A DNA stretch of 64,000 bases from Oscillospiraceae bacterium. Lineage in GTDB: Bacteria > Bacillota > Clostridia > Oscillospirales > Oscillospiraceae. The position numbers and the translations under genes were made by a program. The DNA is taken from contig AP025582.1 of NCBI GenBank assembly GCA_022846075.1, forward strand, positions 3,162,001 through 3,226,000, given 5' to 3'. Shown here one piece after another: positions 1,632 to 59,471 of the stretch (the stretch's first letter is position 1; each line of letters begins with the position of its first letter). The notes beneath the pieces were generated by a model that did not search any database, was not told the origin of the DNA, and saw only the letters and a program-made list of their open reading frames with translations.

Positions 1632-2180
1632 TTCATTTTCCTCCTCATGAATCTTCCGTTGTGGTTGGGTTTGTTATATAAACGGCCCCATCGCCGGAAT
1701 TTCCGCTGTGGAAAAGCAGAAAAGAAGGGCCGCCGCTCTGGCTCGCCCTTTTCTCATCCACTCATCACGACCTGAACCAGGCCGCCTGTGGCAGCAAAAA
1801 ATCTTGTCCCGCGCGAAACGCGCTCAGCAGAAGGTGACACCCTCCGTCTCACTCATACTCTCAATCCGGGCCAGGGATCTCCCCAACCGGCTCCCGCCGG
1901 CCGGGGACCCCCTCAGGATTTCACATACTCGGTCGGCTTCGTCGTCGCAAAGTCCGCTCTCCTCCGTTTTTGCCAATGGCAAAAACTCCAGACGCTCCCT
2001 TGCTCCTCCTCTCCCCAGCAAAACCATGGTTTTGCCGGGGCCCCCTTTACCCTGCGCAATCCTGGCCCAGGCCACTCTCTCTTGCTCCTTCGGAGCAATT
2101 CACCTTGTCCGCTTCGCTCCGAATTTACGGCGCTCCCGCGCCGGGGGTGGAATCCCTGGTCCCGTTCCTTTGGCTTCTTC
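1632..2180. other. Spacer holding element E-A with a repeated xpt gene end
   Basis: This 549-nt gap separates two genes on the minus strand. Next to the lipoprotein start (1632-1700) is its AGGAGG site and an AT-rich TTATATAA patch that may be its promoter. From 1823 to 2180 lies a GC-rich, hairpin-filled element ending in a second copy of the last 17 codons and stop of xpt (see the repeat entry and findings). The far copy is followed by a small GCGCG/CGCGC hairpin and a run of Ts (read on the minus strand), which looks like the native xpt terminator. Confidence 0.7.
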
Positions 2181-2235
2181 TCAGCAGAAGGTAACGCCCT
2201 CCGTCTCACTCATGCTCTCGATCCGGGCCAGGGAT
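1823..2235 (-). repeat. Gene-end-duplicating element E, copy A (xpt)
   Basis: The last 56 nt of xpt through its stop (2180-2235) recur at 1823-1878 with four differences. All four fall at third codon positions and are silent. Between the copies lie about 300 nt with at least two hairpins of the form CCCCGG-stem-TTGGGG, a GGGGAGAGGAGGAGC box, and GC-rich modules shared with copies B (after minD) and C (after pta). The two stops are 357 nt apart. Read in the xpt frame the element encodes LGRGGARER, SGLCDDEADR and related strings, interrupted by one in-frame TGA. The same strings in the same phase occur in copies B or C. Confidence 0.8.
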
Positions 2236-9100: not shown

Positions 9101-9868
9101 CAGACAAGGCGAGGCCAAAAAATCCGCCCGGTACACCGGCACGGGACACCCCTCCACGGGATACTCCCTCCGGCTCCGCCTCAGCCTCCCCCACAATCTC
9201 AGATTGGAGACAACGAACCACGCCGCCATCCCCACCACTCCGGCCACCCAAACCATTCTCAGCAAAACGCTTCCCTCCGGGAGATGAAGCCCCGCTATTC
9301 CGTCCCCGTAGGGGCCGCTGTCCCCAGCGGCCCGCCCTCCGTCACCCACCGGGCCGATCCCAGCGTCGCCCCGCACATCGCTGCCAAGGACTCCCTCCTC
9401 CGGGCTGCTGCCAAAGGCTTCCCCCTTCGTGCTGCTGCCAAGGGCTCCCCCCTTCGTGCTGCTGCCAAGGGCTCCCCCCTCCGGGGGGAGCTGTCCGGCG
9501 ACGCCGGACTGAGAGGGGTCCCCCTGAGAAACCCCGCCCCCCATAACCGTCTGCGGAGCTCCCTCCACATCACTGCCAATGCCTTCCCCCTGGGGGAAGG
9601 TGGTCCGCAGGGCCGGATGAGGGGAACCCTCCCCCACCAACCTGGCCTCCCGTTCCAAAAACACCCCAGCGCCGCCAGCCGCTGCCCGGGCTCCCAAATT
9701 CGCCACGCTCACCGCGCTGGCCCCCAGGTTCACCGGCACCAGCAGCCGCACGGCTACTAGCGCCCACAACGCGTACCTGGCCCCCGCCGGAATGCGGTCC
9801 TTCAATACCCCCCGGATAAGGAACACCGCGCACAGCAACACCGTAGCGGACAAAACCACCTCACGCAT
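6173..9868 (-). CDS. BlaR1/MecR1-like M56 metallopeptidase sensor with large repeated C-terminal region
   Basis: The 1231-residue membrane protein has hydrophobic N-terminal helices and a zinc-peptidase motif HELAHRRHGD (residues about 283-292). RDCELSCD follows, as in M56 antirepressors that cleave or inactivate their BlaI partner. A TM segment near residue 385-405 (AVAAAVCLAMLAGLCTFTG) precedes a large presumably extracytoplasmic part. That part holds three copies of a unit like RFLAEYGKRLYGLPDGAPWKA, FGQQFYRLPKDHPLYCDSV and FGQQFYALPEGAAWKASDV, plus two copies of a KADDVRL-containing unit. No penicillin-binding SxxK sensor domain is recognised, so the inducer is unknown. Residues about 75-195 are repeat-derived (27-bp tandem array plus R1/R5 palindromes) and look like inserted DNA. 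The gene overlaps blaI by 8 nt. Confidence 0.8.
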   Translation of the reverse strand: MREVVLSATVLLCAVFLIRGVLKDRIPAGARYALWALVAVRLLVPVNLGASAVSVANLGARAAAGGAGVFLEREARLVGEGSPHPALRTTFPQGEGIGSDVEGAPQTVMGGGVSQGDPSQSGVAGQLPPEGGALGSSTKGGALGSSTKGEAFGSSPEEGVLGSDVRGDAGIGPVGDGGRAAGDSGPYGDGIAGLHLPEGSVLLRMVWVAGVVGMAAWFVVSNLRLWGRLRRSRREYPVEGCPVPVYRADFLASPCLAGVFRPAIYLNREAAEHPERLKYILAHELAHRRHGDNSWAVVRAACLCLWWFHPLVWIAAVCSKRDCELSCDASAVRALGEEERVPYGRTLVEMVAAGRPRAGELLSASTAMTEGPRQIKERVIQVSAYRKIRKKAVAAAVCLAMLAGLCTFTGAVERGVETETPLHVEAVPGVTALDLEATDEVSIPDFEWAGNEASYSREVAARFLAEYGKRLYGLPDGAPWKAADVAVLGTGYEWTGVPDRQGGWGQEPHKNGRTREVWETGALAVKPVGRLEAVAALYNGGLPRGTGEFEDYALMELACSLTLEDGRWYAHGNKEYSLALRANVTLPPDERDWTDEQVKMWSLDARVSAEVAGDDRAAWEEAGRLWAEAYIRQHLTASDNGSPAKADDVRLTTMELVGWTPSETPEALMFHLEYTFRPVWGKRAGARLVNEMDDNYLGAYWLEDSDYVTVTAAVTLRRGGTDNGKIVWSGYQYQGQYAQNYANGMDLSLPFAVPEAAGEGVKGVEPVGVSVTFPAGTDETRQRYAVFGLWAAEFGQQFYRLPKDHPLYCDSVEVNYGPSFAPSRVTSSGAALTVMGATEDVGLMLRPVNGQKGAADALGSDWTYVYAPGTNGRTYYDGKIDTRWHVTLERSYNDDGSVTWTCVQGRAGQDSDREEPAAVEAIALPYHVEPKAGLSLSTLDGDIICVPDDGKGDLATRWAIQFGQQFYALPEGAAWKASDVVVYDAGDNVGLAVKPAGGLAALEGQFPEGYPCPVGKGELEGYALLQYNVSFRRQTVDIFGTEPVWVKDRGGIQWIPGPPEVGSEDWQDAMEHSWKKFLNGNYSYLNVYANEPGDPDEACRVWAERYLDGLRGDGMWDGGSRKNGGSPLQADDVRLLELTRRAVGEVDGEESVTFTLRYALRPVWGMEVAKACAPDLAEGSGELAGYAVRSASVELRFRAGETDEDDGYGYQREPEGGWYCAGVRYRMHPMG
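9306..9640 (-). repeat. Repeat cluster inside the blaR1-like gene, including 4 x 27-bp tandem array
   Basis: An R5 palindrome (about 9307-9336), four tandem 27-bp units (9376-9402, 9403-9429, 9430-9456, 9457-9483; core CTGCCAAGG), an R1-type palindrome (about 9484-9520) and another R1 half (about 9578-9630) lie in frame. The 27-bp unit gives a 9-residue repeat with LGSSTKGGA core. The same palindromes occur in spacers elsewhere in the window. Confidence 0.8.
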
Positions 9869-22470: not shown

Positions 22471-23208
22471 ATGGCAACTGTGATCGCCGTCACCTCCGGC
22501 AAGGGGGGGACGGGAAAGACCTCTTTCACCGGGGCTGTCTCCTCTTGTCTGGCGGCCCTGGGACACCGGACCCTCTGCATCGATATGGACGTGGGGCTGC
22601 GGAACCTGGATCTTTCCCTGGGGCTGGCCGACCGGGCCCTGATGGACTTCACCGACGTGGTCCAGGGGCGCTGCTCTTTGGAGCGGGCGGTGGTGGAGCA
22701 CCCAGACATCCAGGGGCTCTATCTGCTCACCGCCCCCCTCACCCTGCCCCAGGGGATTCCCGAGCCCGCTATGCGGGACCTGCTGCGGCAGGCCAGGGAG
22801 AAATTCGACTACATCCTGCTGGACGCCCCCGCCGGACTGGGGGAGGGCTTCCGGCTGGCGGTATGCGGGTGCGACCGGGCGGTGGTGGTATCCACCAACG
22901 ACGCCTCCGCCCTGCGGGACGCCCAGCGGACCGTCACCGAGCTGATGGCCCGGGTGGACCAGATCCACCTGGTAGTTAACCGGGTCCAGCCCAAGCTGCT
23001 GCGGCGGCTGCACACCACCATCGACGACGCTATGGACGCCGCGGGGCTGCCCCTTTTGGGGGTGGTGCCCGAGGACAGCCGGGTGATGCTCTCCGCCAAT
23101 CAGGGGAAGCCGCTGATCCTCTGCGCCAACAAGGGCGCGGCGGTGGCGTATCTGAATATTGCCAGACGCATTGACGGGCAGAAGGTGCCGTTGATGAAAA
23201 TCAGATAG
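22471..23208 (+). CDS. minD: Septum-site determining ATPase MinD
   Basis: The 245-residue ATPase has deviant Walker A KGGTGKTS, DMDVGLRNLDLSLGL, DAPAGLGEGF and VVNRVQPKLL, all MinD signatures. MinD binds membrane as an ATP dimer and positions the MinC inhibitor of FtsZ. No minC or minE is adjacent. The C-terminus (DGQKVPLMKIR) does not look like the usual KKGFLxRLFGG amphipathic helix. This same C-terminal peptide is repeated 144 nt downstream by element E. mgsA follows, a gene often linked to min genes in Clostridia. Confidence 0.9.
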   Translation: MATVIAVTSGKGGTGKTSFTGAVSSCLAALGHRTLCIDMDVGLRNLDLSLGLADRALMDFTDVVQGRCSLERAVVEHPDIQGLYLLTAPLTLPQGIPEPAMRDLLRQAREKFDYILLDAPAGLGEGFRLAVCGCDRAVVVSTNDASALRDAQRTVTELMARVDQIHLVVNRVQPKLLRRLHTTIDDAMDAAGLPLLGVVPEDSRVMLSANQGKPLILCANKGAAVAYLNIARRIDGQKVPLMKIR

Positions 23209-23352
23209 CGGGGTCCCCGGCGAAACCGTCAGGTTTCGTTGGGGAGAGGAGGAGCAAGGGAGCGGGCGGAGTTTTCCCCGCAGGGGGAAACGGAGCCAAG
23301 CGGACTTTGCGACGACGATGGGCAGAAGGTGCCGCTGATGAGGATTCGGTGA
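23173..23352 (+). repeat. Gene-end-duplicating element E, copy B (minD)
   Basis: The last 11 codons and stop of minD (23173-23208) recur at 23317-23352. Nine nucleotide differences give DGQKVPLMRIR for DGQKVPLMKIR: five codons differ silently, one Lys/Arg swap occurs, and TAG is replaced by TGA. Between them is the compact element: a GGGGTCCCCGGCGAAACC-loop-GGTTTCGTTGGGG hairpin, GGGGAGAGGAGGAGC, a TTTCCCC/GGGGAAA hairpin, and GCGGACTTTGCGACGACGA. The last is identical to copy A (after xpt). Read in the minD frame it encodes SLGRGGARER and SGLCDDD, in the same phase as copy A. Confidence 0.85.
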
Positions 23353-23857
23353 GGCGCCTTGCGGAAGAGTTTGGGCGTTTGAATGTTAAGTGCTTGCACG
23401 TCAAACGTGCGTGTTTCTGGGGGACGTTTCTTTTCCCGAGGAAAAGAAATGCCGCCCCAGACCCCCAAAGAAAAGTCTCTTGTGCTAACTTGCTCGCAGA
23501 TTCCCTTTTTAGTAGAAGGTCTACTGCCCGTTGATAGGGGTATAAGCACGGGAGCGTCTGTGCGACACGTGGCACTTCTTGCGCCGCTCGGCCGCTGATG
23601 TGTGCTTGACAGACGGTTGGTCTTTCGCCTTCCCCTTGGGGGGAGGTGGCAGCCCGAAGGGCTGGCGGATGAGGGGAACTGTGGATATGGAAAAGGTTCT
23701 GCTAAAGAGATAAGTTCCCCTCATCAGTCTCGCTTCGCTCGACAGCTTCCCCTAGGGGAAGCCTTATTTCGGGGTTGCGGCACTGGATTGGCCGCTTGCT
23801 TTGTGAACGGCGGTTTTTGAGTTTTTGAAGTCTCCTGAGAAAGAAGGGTCATAGGAT
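23353..23857. repeat. R3 composite repeat, copy a, followed by paired R1 units
   Basis: The R3 copy (about 23395-23620, plus orientation) holds an ACGT-flanked hairpin with GGGGGACGTTTCTTTTC, the CCCCAGACCCCCAAAGAAAAG box, the core ATTCCCTTTTTAGTAGAAGG...TCTACTGCC, and TTGCGCCGCTCGGCCGC. An R1 pair follows (23626-23765): CAGCCCGAAGGGCTG half, then AAAGAGATAAGTTCCCCTC half. No gene is evident in this roughly 500-nt stretch. Confidence 0.8.
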
Positions 23858-43351: not shown

Positions 43352-44024
43352 GGGCGGTGGGTTTTTATGGCCGTTGACTCGGGCTTTGAGGTAAGATGCG
43401 GCGGGCCGCTGGGGACAGCGGCCCTTACGGGGTGGGGGGCCTGAGAAGAAGGCTTCCCCTGGGGTCTAGTGGCCCTTAGCGATAGCTTTAGGGCCACTTG
43501 ATGCAAGCGAAGTCGTTGAAGCTGGCTGCGAAGCAGACTGATGAGGGGGATGTATCACTTTGGTAGAGCCTTTTCTGTTATCCCTAGTTCCCCTCATCCG
43601 TCAGCCCTTTGGGCTGCCACCTTCCCCCGAGGGGAAGGCTAAAGACCACCCCTTTGTCAAGAACACGTTAGCGGCCGAGCGGCGCAAGAGGGACCACGGG
43701 TCGTACAGACGCACCCGTGCTTTTCCCCCTTTCAACAAGCAGTAGACCTGCCACTAAAAAGGGAATCTGTGAACAGGGCTACACCAGAGACTTTTCTTTG
43801 GGGGTCTGGGGCCGCAGCGTTGAGAAAATGCGCCGGTGGCGCATTTTTAGCGGAGGCTGGCCGGCTATGCCGGCCAGGTCACCCTTCCCTGAGAACGAAA
43901 AGAAACATCCCCCACAAGGGCGCACCTTCCGAGGTGCAGTCAGGCATCTGCCCTTTCTAGGAACCGCCGTCCGCGCAAAAAAGCGCCGGGAGAAATATTC
44001 TCCCGGCGCCTGTTTTGATTCCAT
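43352..44024. repeat. Repeat-only spacer: R5, R1 and R3 copy c
   Basis: R5 (about 43403-43430), a hairpin TAGTGGCCCT/AGGGCCACT (about 43467-43500), an R1 half (CATCCGTCAGCCC...GGCTGCCACC, about 43574-43640) and R3 copy c (about 43640-43930, minus orientation). R3 copy c carries the TTTCTTTGGGGGTCTGGGG box, the ATGCGCCGGTGGCGCAT hairpin, the CTGGCCGGCTATGCCGGCCAG hairpin and GAACGAAAAGAAACATCCCCC. A terminator-like CGCCGGGAGAAATATTCTCCCGGCG (about 43984-44008) followed by CTGTTTTG serves the convergent M23 gene. No CDS. Confidence 0.8.
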
Positions 44025-46151: not shown

Positions 46152-46225
46152 TATGCAACTTCCACAACATTTCCGTCTCCGAAGGATAAAAACATATCAC
46201 CCGCCTGACGGCGGAAAACCCCCAT

Positions 46226-46264
46226 AAAACAAGGACAGCCCCGTTTAGGGGCTGTCCTTGTTTT
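46226..46264. terminator. Terminator beyond element E-C (native pta terminator)
   Basis: A 17-bp perfect stem AAAACAAGGACAGCCCC/GGGGCTGTCCTTGTTTT is T-rich on both strands. It lies 12 nt beyond the second (distal) copy of the pta gene end, which suggests the distal copy is where pta originally ended. Confidence 0.9.
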
Positions 46265-46275
46265 ATATTCGTCTC

Positions 46276-46534
46276 TCAGCTCAGGGCGGCGGTGATAATG
46301 GCCATGGAGCAGCTCCCCGCAAAGCAAGCTTTGCGGGGGACCCCTTGAATTTCAAATGCTCGGTCGGCAAAGCTTCCCTGCGCGATTTTCCGCCGCTTTG
46401 CGGCTCCAAATCCACGGCGCATTCGCGCCGGCCCCGCCTCCGGCGGGGCGGAGGTCTCCTCCCCCAAAGCCGCGGGTGCCGGTCAGAAATCCCGCTTTCC
46501 TCAGCTCAGGGCAGCGGTGATAATGGCCATGGAG
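46276..46534 (-). repeat. Gene-end-duplicating element E, copy C (pta)
   Basis: The last 10 codons and stop of pta (46501-46534) recur at 46276-46309 with one silent change (GCT/GCC). Stops are 225 nt apart. The roughly 190-nt core shares modules with copy A (after xpt), read in the host gene's direction: GGCGCG-CGCC followed by ATTTGGAGC, GCGCAGGG, GCCGACCGAGCATTTGAAAT and GGGGTCCCC-hairpin-GGGG. In the pta frame it encodes PARMRRGFGAAKRRKIAQG and ADRAFEI. These correspond to PARERRKFGAKR, IAQG and ADRVCEI in copy A. Confidence 0.82.
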
Positions 46535-47487
46535 TAGACCTCCTGGGCGTTGCAGCCCCGGGAGAGGTCGTTGACGGGGGCGTTCAGGCCCAGCAGGATG
46601 GGGCCGTAGGCGTCGAAGGAGCCAAGGCGCTGAGCGATCTTGTAGCCGATGTTGCCGGCGTTGATGTCGGGGAAAATGAAGGTGTTGGCGTAGCCGGCCA
46701 CCTTGGAGTCGGGGCACTTGGTGGCGGCCACCCGGGGGGAGACGGCGGCGTCGAACTGGAGCTCGCCGTCCACGTCGAAGTCGGGGTTGGAGGCCACCAG
46801 CTTCTCGTAGGCGTGGCGGACCTTGTCCACGTCCTCGCCGGAGCCGGAGCCGTGGGTAGAGTAGGAGAGCATGGCCACCTTGGGCTCGATGCCGAAGACC
46901 CGGCCGCAGGCGGCCACCTCGGTGGCGATCTCCACCAGCTCGTCCTCGCTGGGCTTGATGTTGATGGCGCAGTCGCCCATGGCCAGGACCTCCCGGTCGC
47001 CGGTGGCGGAGGGGCGGACCAGGATGAAGCAGGAGGAGACGATCTTGTTGCCCGGCTTGGTCTTGATGAGCTGGAGGGCGGGACGGACGGTGTCGGCGGT
47101 GGAGTAGGTGGCGCCGCCCAGCAGGCAGTCGGCCTCCCCCATCTTCACCAGCATGGTGCCGAAGTAGTTGGCCTGCATGAGCTTCTTGCGGCACTCCTCC
47201 TCGGTCATCTTGCCCTTGCGCAGCTCCACCATCTTGGCCACCATGGCGTCCATGCCCTCGTAGGTGGCGGGGTCCAGCACCCGGGCGCCCCGGATGTTGA
47301 AGCCCTCCCGCTCGGCGGCGGCGTGGACCTCCGCCTCCTTGCCCACCAGGACGGGGGTGAGCCAGGTGCCGGCCAGCAGGCGGGCGCTGGCCTCCAGGAT
47401 GCGCTCGTCGGTGCCCTCCGTGAACACAATGGTCTTGGGGGCCTTTTTCAGTTTTTCGATCATCGTGCCGAATCCGAACTTTTCCAT
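46501..47487 (-). CDS. pta: Phosphate acetyltransferase
   Basis: The 328-residue short-form Pta interconverts acetyl-CoA and acetyl phosphate for acetate fermentation. Signatures: LLGGATYSTADTVRPALQLIKTKPG, SSCFILV, MGDCAINIKPSEDELVEIA and NTFIFPDINAGNIGYKIAQRLG. No ackA is adjacent. GGAGGATC precedes the ATG. A TTGATAC/GTATCAA palindrome lies in the leader (47511-47528). Its 3' end is duplicated by element E copy C. Confidence 0.95.
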   Translation of the reverse strand: MEKFGFGTMIEKLKKAPKTIVFTEGTDERILEASARLLAGTWLTPVLVGKEAEVHAAAEREGFNIRGARVLDPATYEGMDAMVAKMVELRKGKMTEEECRKKLMQANYFGTMLVKMGEADCLLGGATYSTADTVRPALQLIKTKPGNKIVSSCFILVRPSATGDREVLAMGDCAINIKPSEDELVEIATEVAACGRVFGIEPKVAMLSYSTHGSGSGEDVDKVRHAYEKLVASNPDFDVDGELQFDAAVSPRVAATKCPDSKVAGYANTFIFPDINAGNIGYKIAQRLGSFDAYGPILLGLNAPVNDLSRGCNAQEVYSMAIITAALS

Positions 47488-48387: not shown

Positions 48388-48889
48388 GGGGTGTGCAGGC
48401 GTTGAGGGCGGGTCTTGGCTCTTTGAAATGGGGCCTTTTGCCTTGGCGGGCAGTTCCCCTCATCCGTCAGTGCTTTGGGCTGGGGCGTTTGTCTTAGCTG
48501 TCCGTTCCCCTCATCCGTCAGCGGCTTCGCCGCTGCCACCTTCCCCCGAGGGGAAGGCTAAGAACCCCCCTCTATCAAGCACGTGTCAGCGGCAGCGGCG
48601 CAAGAGGGACCACGGGTCGTACAGACGCTCCCGCGCTTATACCCCTTCTTCGGGCAGTAGACCTTCTACCGGGAAGGGAATCTGCGAGCAGGGCTACTCT
48701 AAAGACTTTTCTTTGGGGGTCTGGGGCCGCAGCGTTAAGAAAATGCGCCGGTGGCGCATTTTTAGCGGAGGCTGGCCGGCTATGCCGGCCAGGTCACCCT
48801 TCCCTGAGAACGAAAAGAAACATCCCCCAGAAGGAAGCACGCCTCGACGTGCAATCAGTGAACAATATTAAGAACCACGGAGGTTTTTT
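48388..48889. repeat. Repeat-only spacer: R1 units and R3 copy d
   Basis: Two R1 fragments (about 48447-48480 and 48505-48560, CATCCGTCAG...GCTGCCACC) and R3 copy d (about 48565-48850, minus orientation). The R3 copy carries the CTTTTCTTTGGGGGTCTGGGG box (about 48705-48726), the ATGCGCCGGTGGCGCAT and CTGGCCGGCTATGCCGGCCAG hairpins, and GCACGCCTCGACGTGC. Sequence from 48705 to 48830 is nearly identical to R3 copy c (43790-43910). The lepA ribosome site (GGAGG) closes the spacer. Confidence 0.8.
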
Positions 48890-57732: not shown

Positions 57733-58198
57733 GGCGCATTTTATCTACTGACGGACGACACCTCGGAGGTGCGGCCTTCTGGGGGAGGTTTCTTTTCCTG
57801 AGGAAAAGAAACCTCCCCCAGACCCCCAAAGAAAAGGCTTTTGGTGCTGACCTGGGGGCAGATTCCCTTTTTGGTAGGAGGTCTACTGCCCGAAGATCGG
57901 GGGATAAGCGCGGGTGCGGCTGTGCGACACGTGGTCCCTCTTGCGCCGCTCGCCGCTGACGTGTTCTTGATTGATAAGTCCCCCATTCGCACATGCCCTT
58001 TGCCTTCCCCTCGGGGGAAGGTGGCAGCCCGAAGGGCTGACGGATGAGGGGAACTGGTGATAACAGCAAAGGCCCTGCTAAAGAGATAAGTTCCCCTCAT
58101 CAGTCTGCTTCGCAGACAGCTTCCCCCAGGGGAAGCCTAAAGGGCCGCGACCTTGGAAAACGCTGCAAAAGGGGACGTAACGTGCATCCATAGAAAAG
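57733..58198. repeat. R3 composite repeat, copy e, with paired R1 units
   Basis: Plus orientation: ACACCTCGGAGGTGCGG, a GAGGTTTCTTTTCC/GGAAAAGAAACCTC hairpin (about 57784-57813), CCCCCAGACCCCCAAAGAAAAG, the core ATTCCCTTTTTGGTAGGAGG...TCTACTGCCCG, CGACACGTGGTCCC, TTGCGCCGCTCGCCGC (to about 57970). Then the R1 pair (58006-58140): AGCCCGAAGGGCTGACGG half and AAAGAGATAAGTTCCCC half. Same order as R3 copy a (23395-23765). No gene evident. Confidence 0.82.
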
Positions 58199-59008: not shown

Positions 59009-59471
59009 GTGTTTCTCCTCCTTGTGAATTTTCAACAAATAATCGAGGGGTTGCTTGGTTATGTTTTATGGTAGCACACTACCGAAGAAAATACAAGGAA
59101 ACCAGTGGGTTTAATCTGCTGGGATGAGGGATGTTTTCGTTTGGTTGGCTGCTGACTGCATGTTGGGACGTGGGTCCCCTTGCGCCGCTGCCGCTAATAG
59201 CTTCTTGATAGCGACTGGTCTTTTAGCCTTCCCCCTGGGGGAAGGTGGCAGCCCGAAGGGCTGACGGATGAGGGGAACTATGGAAAACACGAAAGGCTCT
59301 GCTAAAGAGATAAGTTCCCCTCATCAGTCTGCTTCGCAGACAGCTTCCCCCAGGGGTAGCCTAAGGGGCGATGAGGTTGGTGCGGAGTACGTTTTCCTGT
59401 TCTTTTGTGGGTGGCCATGGAAGCAATTAAAAAGGGCCACCCGCTGGAAGGCGGGTGGTCCTTACTGTTTC
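59009..59471. repeat. Spacer with partial R3 core and paired R1 units (copy f)
   Basis: A degenerate R3 end (GACGTGGGTCCCCTTGCGCCGCTGCCGC, about 59167-59195) precedes the R1 pair (59228-59366): CCTTCCCCCTGGGGGAAGG, CAGCCCGAAGGGCTGACGG, AAAGAGATAAGTTCCCCTC, TCTGCTTCGCAGACAGC. An AAGGGCCACCCGC/GCGGGTGGTCCTT hairpin (about 59434-59462) ends the ABC gene on the minus strand. No gene. Confidence 0.78.

What the first reader, a model, noticed from the sequence alone, without database searches (positions are those of the whole stretch)
46276..46534. Element E-C: pta gene end repeated, with the native terminator beyond the distal copy
The final 10 codons and stop of pta recur 225 nt (75 codons) away with a single silent change. 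The strong terminator (46226-46264) lies just past the distal copy, so the distal copy sits where pta originally ended and the proximal copy is the newcomer that keeps the protein complete. The core shares PAR-RR-FGA-KR, IAQG and ADR--EI with the xpt element in the same frame. Three loci out of three with multiples of three (about 1 in 27 by chance) and a shared phase point to a mechanism or selection that respects codons.
Basis: partly seen in the sequence, partly recalled or inferred. Interest (0 to 1): 0.85.

Follow-up and report, generated by a model that had tools for sequence, protein, structure and literature searches.

The report
Gene-end-duplicating mobile repeat beside pta
The repeated end of the pta gene is the footprint of a small, hairpin-rich mobile DNA repeat of gut bacteria, which sits at gene ends together with a second copy of the gene's last codons and often a short backwards copy of the spot where it went in.

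Summary
In detail: the last 10 codons and stop of pta recur 225 nt away with one silent change, and a terminator follows the distal copy. The stretch between is a member of a dispersed, structured, non-coding element family without an Rfam match. A covariance model of a related type finds it in 81 of 297 Oscillospirales genomes; 14 of 25 predicted pairs show compensatory change. I read 33 gene-boundary copies: 31 at gene ends in sense, 2 at gene starts in antisense. In 21 of 33 an antisense copy (X') of the target lies just before the element, spanning the insertion junction in all 21; pta itself falls just below the 99% level. Codon phase is refuted: periods mod 3 are 11/11/8 of 30. The 11 congeners read lack the pta repeat. 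Other copies abut tRNA 3' ends or tmRNA 5' ends. Best reading: insertion of a non-autonomous mobile element whose 3' end is joined to a cut inside the gene, with X' guide-like, possibly by target-primed reverse transcription. The insertion is well supported; enzyme and route are inferred.

The parts
46501..47487 (-). pta, 328 aa, intact
   Evidence: ORF, translation
46500..46537 (-). B1, gene-proximal copy of the repeated end (coding part 46501-46534)
   Evidence: direct repeat
46531..46543 (-). target stretch matched by X' (junction X|B between 46535 and 46534)
46450..46462 (-). X', antisense copy (GGAGGAGACCTCC) of the junction, 12 of 13 pairs; score 10.0 against 99% null level 10.2 and 95% level 9
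46313..46449 (-). structured element, type F1 (hairpins; core GCGCAGGG...CCGACCGAGCAT)
   Evidence: dispersed copies, folds
46275..46312 (-). B2, distal copy of the pta end
   Evidence: direct repeat
46224..46266 (-). terminator-like hairpin beyond B2
   Evidence: inverted repeat
1823..2235 (-). same anatomy at xpt: 56-nt gene-end repeats 1823-1878 and 2180-2235 around a composite F1+F2 element, with X'
23176..23341 (+). same anatomy at a MinD/CooC-like gene: repeats 23176-23197 and 23320-23341 around an F2 element; no X' found

Best explanation
The feature is an insertion of a short (about 110-190 nt), non-coding, hairpin-structured, non-autonomous mobile element. SHOWN: the element is dispersed over the order; its 3' end joins target sequence directly, inside a gene or beside a tRNA or tmRNA gene; the codons downstream of that junction occur twice (B1 next to the gene body, B2 after the element), so the gene stays intact; in most of the gene copies read, an antisense copy (X') of the target, spanning the junction, lies just 5' of the element. 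INFERRED: an RNA copy of the element, positioned by X', is written into DNA from a 3' end exposed at the junction on the other strand, as in target-primed reverse transcription, by an enzyme supplied in trans. Inside a gene only insertions in which the rest of the gene is supplied again on the upstream side survive, which would explain why the gene body was upstream of the element in all 33 copies read. For pta this leaves the protein unchanged and puts the element and a spare copy of the gene end between stop codon and terminator.
For: Dispersed family with covarying structure. Exact 3' end: in F2 copies CGACG plus one nucleotide, then B2; 6 of 129 non-redundant F2 copies abut a tRNA 3' end exactly; tmRNA 5' ends abutted exactly in two genomes. 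X' above the 99% null level in 21 of 33 gene copies, 21 of 21 spanning the junction, 15 of 21 beginning 6-9 nt upstream of it; by gene, 15 of 22 gene groups. 31 of 33 copies are gene ends in sense, 2 are gene starts in antisense. Where B1 and B2 differ under X' (L007, L028, L043, read by eye) X' matches B1.
Against: No reverse transcriptase or other enzyme was tied to the element; none recurs next to 109 F2 copies. 12 of 33 gene copies fail the 99% level (pta and L029 pass 95%), and both ychF copies have no X'. 81 of 109 F2 copies show no flanking repeat. The end of the duplicate at the stop codon (16 of 30) is not explained. The low nonsynonymous share between B1 and B2 (15 of 91 changes) is not predicted by a dead B2 unless alleles recombine.
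Confidence: 0.4

Rival explanations
1. DNA-only origin: staggered breakage, snap-back synthesis and template switching, like a miniature tandem-inversion duplication. The free 3' end of the gene end folds back and copies the junction (making X'), then switches to the element.
For: Direct-inverted-direct order of the parts; X' agrees with B1 in the three cases where B1 and B2 differ under it (by eye); the duplicated eno terminator has an inverted loop between its two copies.
Against: An exact element end shared by unrelated sites and the narrow placing of X' ask for a specific enzyme; it does not explain the copies flush with tRNA and tmRNA genes.
Confidence: 0.2
2. Homing cassette: the mobile unit is [B1 - spacer - X' - element], inserted at X|B of the same gene in other genomes, so that B1 may be foreign and B2 native.
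For: 76 synonymous against 15 nonsynonymous differences between B1 and B2 in 21 loci; the same junction in several genera for pgk, in two genomes for ychF and two for tpiA with a shared X' mismatch; tandem units in L109, L115, L232, L233.
Against: In G005 pgk both B1 and B2 are about 75% identical to the empty sister G003, whose gene body is 91-97% identical, so B2 does not look native there; plain vertical descent with losses would also give shared junctions.
Confidence: 0.15
3. Intron-like splicing: [B1 - spacer - X' - element] is removed from the transcript, X' splinting X to B2.
For: X' pairs with both sides of the joined junction; B2 keeps the coding sequence and a stop in the 21 loci (15 of 91 changes nonsynonymous, p = 7e-6 against one free copy).
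Against: B2 is broken or truncated in L043, L051 and L210 (read); gene-start copies in antisense (L005, L031) cannot be spliced from the gene's mRNA; no Rfam intron match; many copies lack X'.
Confidence: 0.12
4. Single-strand DNA transposition by a Y1 (IS200/IS605- or RAYT-like) transposase, X' being an extended guide beside the hairpins.
For: Hairpin ends and a target-pairing stretch next to them resemble what is recalled of IS200/IS605 ends.
Against: Known guides are a few nt and that transposition gives no target duplication (recalled); no such gene recurs near the element; not searched genome-wide.
Confidence: 0.1
5. One reading: insertion or selection that keeps codon phase.
For: The three window loci have periods 225, 357 and 144.
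Against: Periods mod 3: 11/11/8 of 30 loci, 5/3/3 of 11 in this genome.
Confidence: 0.02

Closest known systems
REP/BIME palindromic repeats with RAYT transposases, and bacterial MITEs (properties recalled)
   Same: Short, non-coding, hairpin-forming, dispersed, non-autonomous; often near gene ends.
   Different: Here a long copy of the gene end and an antisense copy of the junction; no element-borne terminal inverted repeat frames it; order-wide covarying structure.
Non-LTR retroelements / SINEs (target-primed reverse transcription; recalled)
   Same: Exact 3' end, variable 5' junction, long and variable target duplication, RNA-like non-autonomous copies.
   Different: Bacterial; antisense target copy at the 5' side; no reverse transcriptase identified.
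Group I and II introns (guide pairing at the splice site; recalled)
   Same: A stretch pairs with both sides of the junction, like an internal guide sequence.
   Different: Two or a few hairpins only, no Rfam match, B2 decayed in several copies.
Integrase-borne islands that restore a gene's 3' end (recalled)
   Same: Gene 3' end duplicated, gene kept intact, tRNA 3' ends used.
   Different: No integrase; repeated blocks differ from gene to gene, so there is no common attachment site.

Membership tests
Rfam 15 families | match at the curated score | tested here: not met
   matches to 7 own-genome loci at E up to 1, each below its gathering score
MITE | terminal inverted repeats belonging to the element | tested here: not met
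   ends are hp1 or hp4 hairpins and CGACGA or GGGGA; inverted match is with the target, not between ends
MITE | short target duplication of fixed length | tested here: not met
   gene-end repeats from 22 to over 100 nt
REP/RAYT | a RAYT transposase in the genome that acts on the repeat | not tested
   only genes near 109 F2 copies were clustered
Non-LTR / SINE-like retroelement | RNA intermediate and reverse transcriptase | not testable with these tools
   no RNA data; no enzyme found near copies
Non-LTR / SINE-like retroelement | exact 3' end with variable-length target duplication | tested here: met
   but 81 of 109 F2 copies show no repeat
Group I/II intron | conserved catalytic core | tested here: not met
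   no Rfam match; F2 is two hairpins
Group I/II intron | splicing of the transcript | not testable with these tools
   needs RNA-seq
Tyrosine-integrase island | integrase gene carried | tested here: not met
   inserts of 130-357 nt periods, no such ORF
Tyrosine-integrase island | common attachment core in all insertions | tested here: not met
   each block is a different gene end; junctions share little beyond T|GG

The most novel reading that the evidence does not exclude
Oscillospirales carry RNAs made of a 5' antisense guide (X'), a hairpin scaffold and a 3' end that is written directly onto DNA at the guided junction: a natural guide-addressed retroelement, in anatomy like a prime-editing guide RNA, which spares its host gene because a second copy of the gene's last codons stands before it.
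Probability: 0.25. Interest if true: 0.97.

Novelty: new variant of a known kind. Interest (0 to 1): 0.8.

Why it matters
The family is common in abundant gut bacteria (81 of 297 Oscillospirales genomes with the model used), has no Rfam match, and nothing like it appeared in paper searches. Its insertions stand at ends of highly conserved genes (pgk, tpiA, eno, groES, rpoD, ychF; names recalled from C-terminal sequence) without breaking them. The junction-spanning antisense copy is a direct clue to how such an element enters a site; if it acts as a guide it would be a new addressable insertion route. It also shows that repeated gene ends in these genomes need not be assembly errors or tandem duplications.

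Tried and rejected
Codon-phase constraint: not met. Simple readthrough into the distal copy: 19 of 30 periods are not multiples of three. Plain tandem duplication: a dispersed element stands between the copies. Coding element: the 63-aa ORF 46276-46467 has no kept counterpart in other copies, which differ in length and phase. Autonomous neighbour gene: clustering of ORFs around 109 F2 copies gave the element itself, a pair of conjugation-like genes in 4 loci and glycolysis neighbours. Element at the apex of an inverted repeat as a general rule: 2 of 109 copies above the null, 0 of 28 with repeat and 2 of 81 without, though copies in G198 and G034 sit in other repeats. Orientation of intergenic copies: ORF calls too noisy to use. 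Earlier X' tests were weaker or had a null containing same-gene pairs: 10 of 25, 10 of 28 with and 5 of 81 without a repeat, 9 of 33; one search leaves same-gene pairs out of the null. Rows dropped: L114, L146 and L166; L028, L029 and L043 (no comparable stop) and the antisense L005 and L031 (L114 was counted there). L056, L127, L148, L112, L081 and L151 were not taken as gene ends; L042, L051, L156, L210, L212, L224, L241, L252 were read but not all entered (L210 only). The 33 loci were picked by eye, not drawn at random, and 16 of them share a gene with another.

Full report
OBSERVATION. pta runs leftwards from 47487 to 46501. Its last 10 codons and stop occur again 225 nt further on, 34 of 35 nt identical, with one silent change and no amino-acid change. 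A 19-nt perfect hairpin followed by a T run stands beyond the distal copy. The coordinates in the finding are right.

A FAMILY. Searching this 3.23-Mb genome with the pta element gave 7 further matches; 5 of them have long flanking direct repeats of their own. The repeats are ends of different genes (by C-terminal sequence, names recalled: smc, groES, deoC, a sensor kinase) and, at L005, the start of a gene on the other strand. The xpt and 23.2-kb loci of the window belong too. There are two related types: F1 (pta), several GC hairpins with a GCGCAGGG...CCGACCGAGCAT core, and F2, hairpin hp4 followed by hp5 (GAGGAGGAGCAAGGGAGCG ... GCGGACTTTGCGACGACGA). The xpt copy is a composite of both. With the xpt element as query 15 of 16 genomes of the genus have a match. 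A strict F2 pattern with up to one mismatch hits 15 of 120 family genomes. A covariance model from 50 F2 sequences (14 of 25 pairs with at least one compensatory change) finds 81 of 297 genomes of the order, 48 of 146 genera, at E up to 1e-4 (copy numbers capped), and 14 matches at E up to 0.01 in this genome. The exact pattern occurs in 12 viral contig stretches; one F2 copy matches 2 phage records and no PLSDB plasmid. No Rfam family reaches its score.

ANATOMY. In transcript order a gene copy reads: gene body - X | B1 - spacer - X' - element | B2 - flank. (a) An F2 element ends CGACG plus one nucleotide and B2 follows. In 129 non-redundant F2 copies GG follows in 47; in genes the junction resembles T|GG. 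(b) B1 and B2 are the rest of the gene. In 16 of 30 loci the identical block ends within 2 nt of the stop codon. In the eno copy of this genome it runs on through the terminator hairpin. In L109, L115, L232 and L233 the identity runs on into X' and the next element, that is, tandem units. (c) X' is an antisense copy of the target. Scored with G-U pairs against 992 pairings of different genes, 21 of 33 loci exceed the 99% level of 10.2 (largest null 12.4, best locus 18.6). All 21 stretches span the junction and 15 of 21 begin 6-9 nt upstream of it. By gene this is 15 of 22 gene groups. pta scores 10.0, above the 95% level only. Both ychF copies have no X'. (d) Of the 33 copies, 31 are gene ends in sense and 2 (L005, L031) gene starts in antisense; the gene body is upstream of the element in all 33 as I read them.

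OTHER SITES. 81 of 109 F2 copies show no flanking repeat. Six of 129 abut exactly the 3' end of an antisense tRNA gene. In this genome four more matches end within 3 nt of a tRNA 3' end and one abuts the 5' end of tmRNA, as does a copy in G105. Some copies sit in other repeats or in each other (G198, G034).

AGE. Of 14 congeners with a pta match I read 11; none has the repeat. Other insertions look older or transferred: pgk copies at one junction share the X' GCCGGGCAGCTCC in L144, L232, L233 and L212, with small changes in L210 and L213; tpiA copies L058 and L351 share an X' mismatch; ychF has the insertion at the same junction in G000 and G004 but not in G008; the fhs-like copies L042 and L043 share X' 15 of 15 while hp5 shows a compensatory change.

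B1 AGAINST B2. Over 21 loci there are 76 synonymous and 15 nonsynonymous differences. If one copy were free of constraint about 38% nonsynonymous would be expected (p = 7e-6). Either B2 is translated (splicing) or B2 is renewed by recombination with other alleles. Against splicing: B2 is broken or truncated in L043, L051 and L210, changed in L351 (read), and the antisense gene-start copy L031 shows the same allele-like divergence. In G005 pgk both copies are about 75% identical to the empty sister G003 while the gene body is 91-97% identical, which points to recombination at the site.

MECHANISM. The 3' junction is the exact event and the 5' side varies, as in target-primed reverse transcription; X' looks like a guide or its copy; survival would explain why the rest of the gene stands upstream. 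The enzyme, an RNA intermediate and the way X' arises are not shown. Snap-back DNA synthesis, homing of a cassette, splicing and single-strand transposition remain as rivals. The end of the duplicate at the stop codon is not explained by the leading model and is the oddest feature left.

Element and terminator: supported. Multiples of three: 11/11/8 of 30 and 5/3/3 of 11 in this genome, so chance. Letters shared with xpt: a conserved structured sequence read in translation.

LITERATURE. Paper searches (listings and abstract openings seen) gave nothing on such an element; most subscription papers are not in that library. Statements on introns, integrases, MITEs, REP/RAYT, IS200/IS605 and prime editing are recalled.

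Noticed in passing
L297:1501-1613 (own genome); L352 574/575 (G105): In two genomes an F2 element ends exactly where the tmRNA gene begins (sense).
   Followed up: partly
L299, L300, L303, L304; L101, L108, L124, L133, L158, L183: F2 elements flush with, or within 3 nt of, the 3' end of antisense tRNA genes, often between neighbouring tRNA genes.
   Followed up: partly
L339, L340, L344 (G198): Element copies nested in the hp5 hairpin of another copy; other G198 copies sit in a repeated CATTGCGAACCAGTGC palindrome.
   Followed up: no
L301 (own genome, eno end): The duplicated terminator's loop is inverted between the two copies (CCTATGG / CCATAGG), as hairpin template switching would give.
   Followed up: no
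L060, L107, L128, L164: F2 copies beside the same pair of conjugation-like genes in four loci.
   Followed up: no
window 23391-23730, 43518-43943, 48428-48871, 57759-58156, 59169-59380: Other long dispersed repeats with GGATGAGGGGAAC / GTTCCCCTCATC motifs, unrelated to this element as far as seen.
   Followed up: no
window 9380-9487: Four tandem 27-nt units starting GCTGCCAAG.
   Followed up: no
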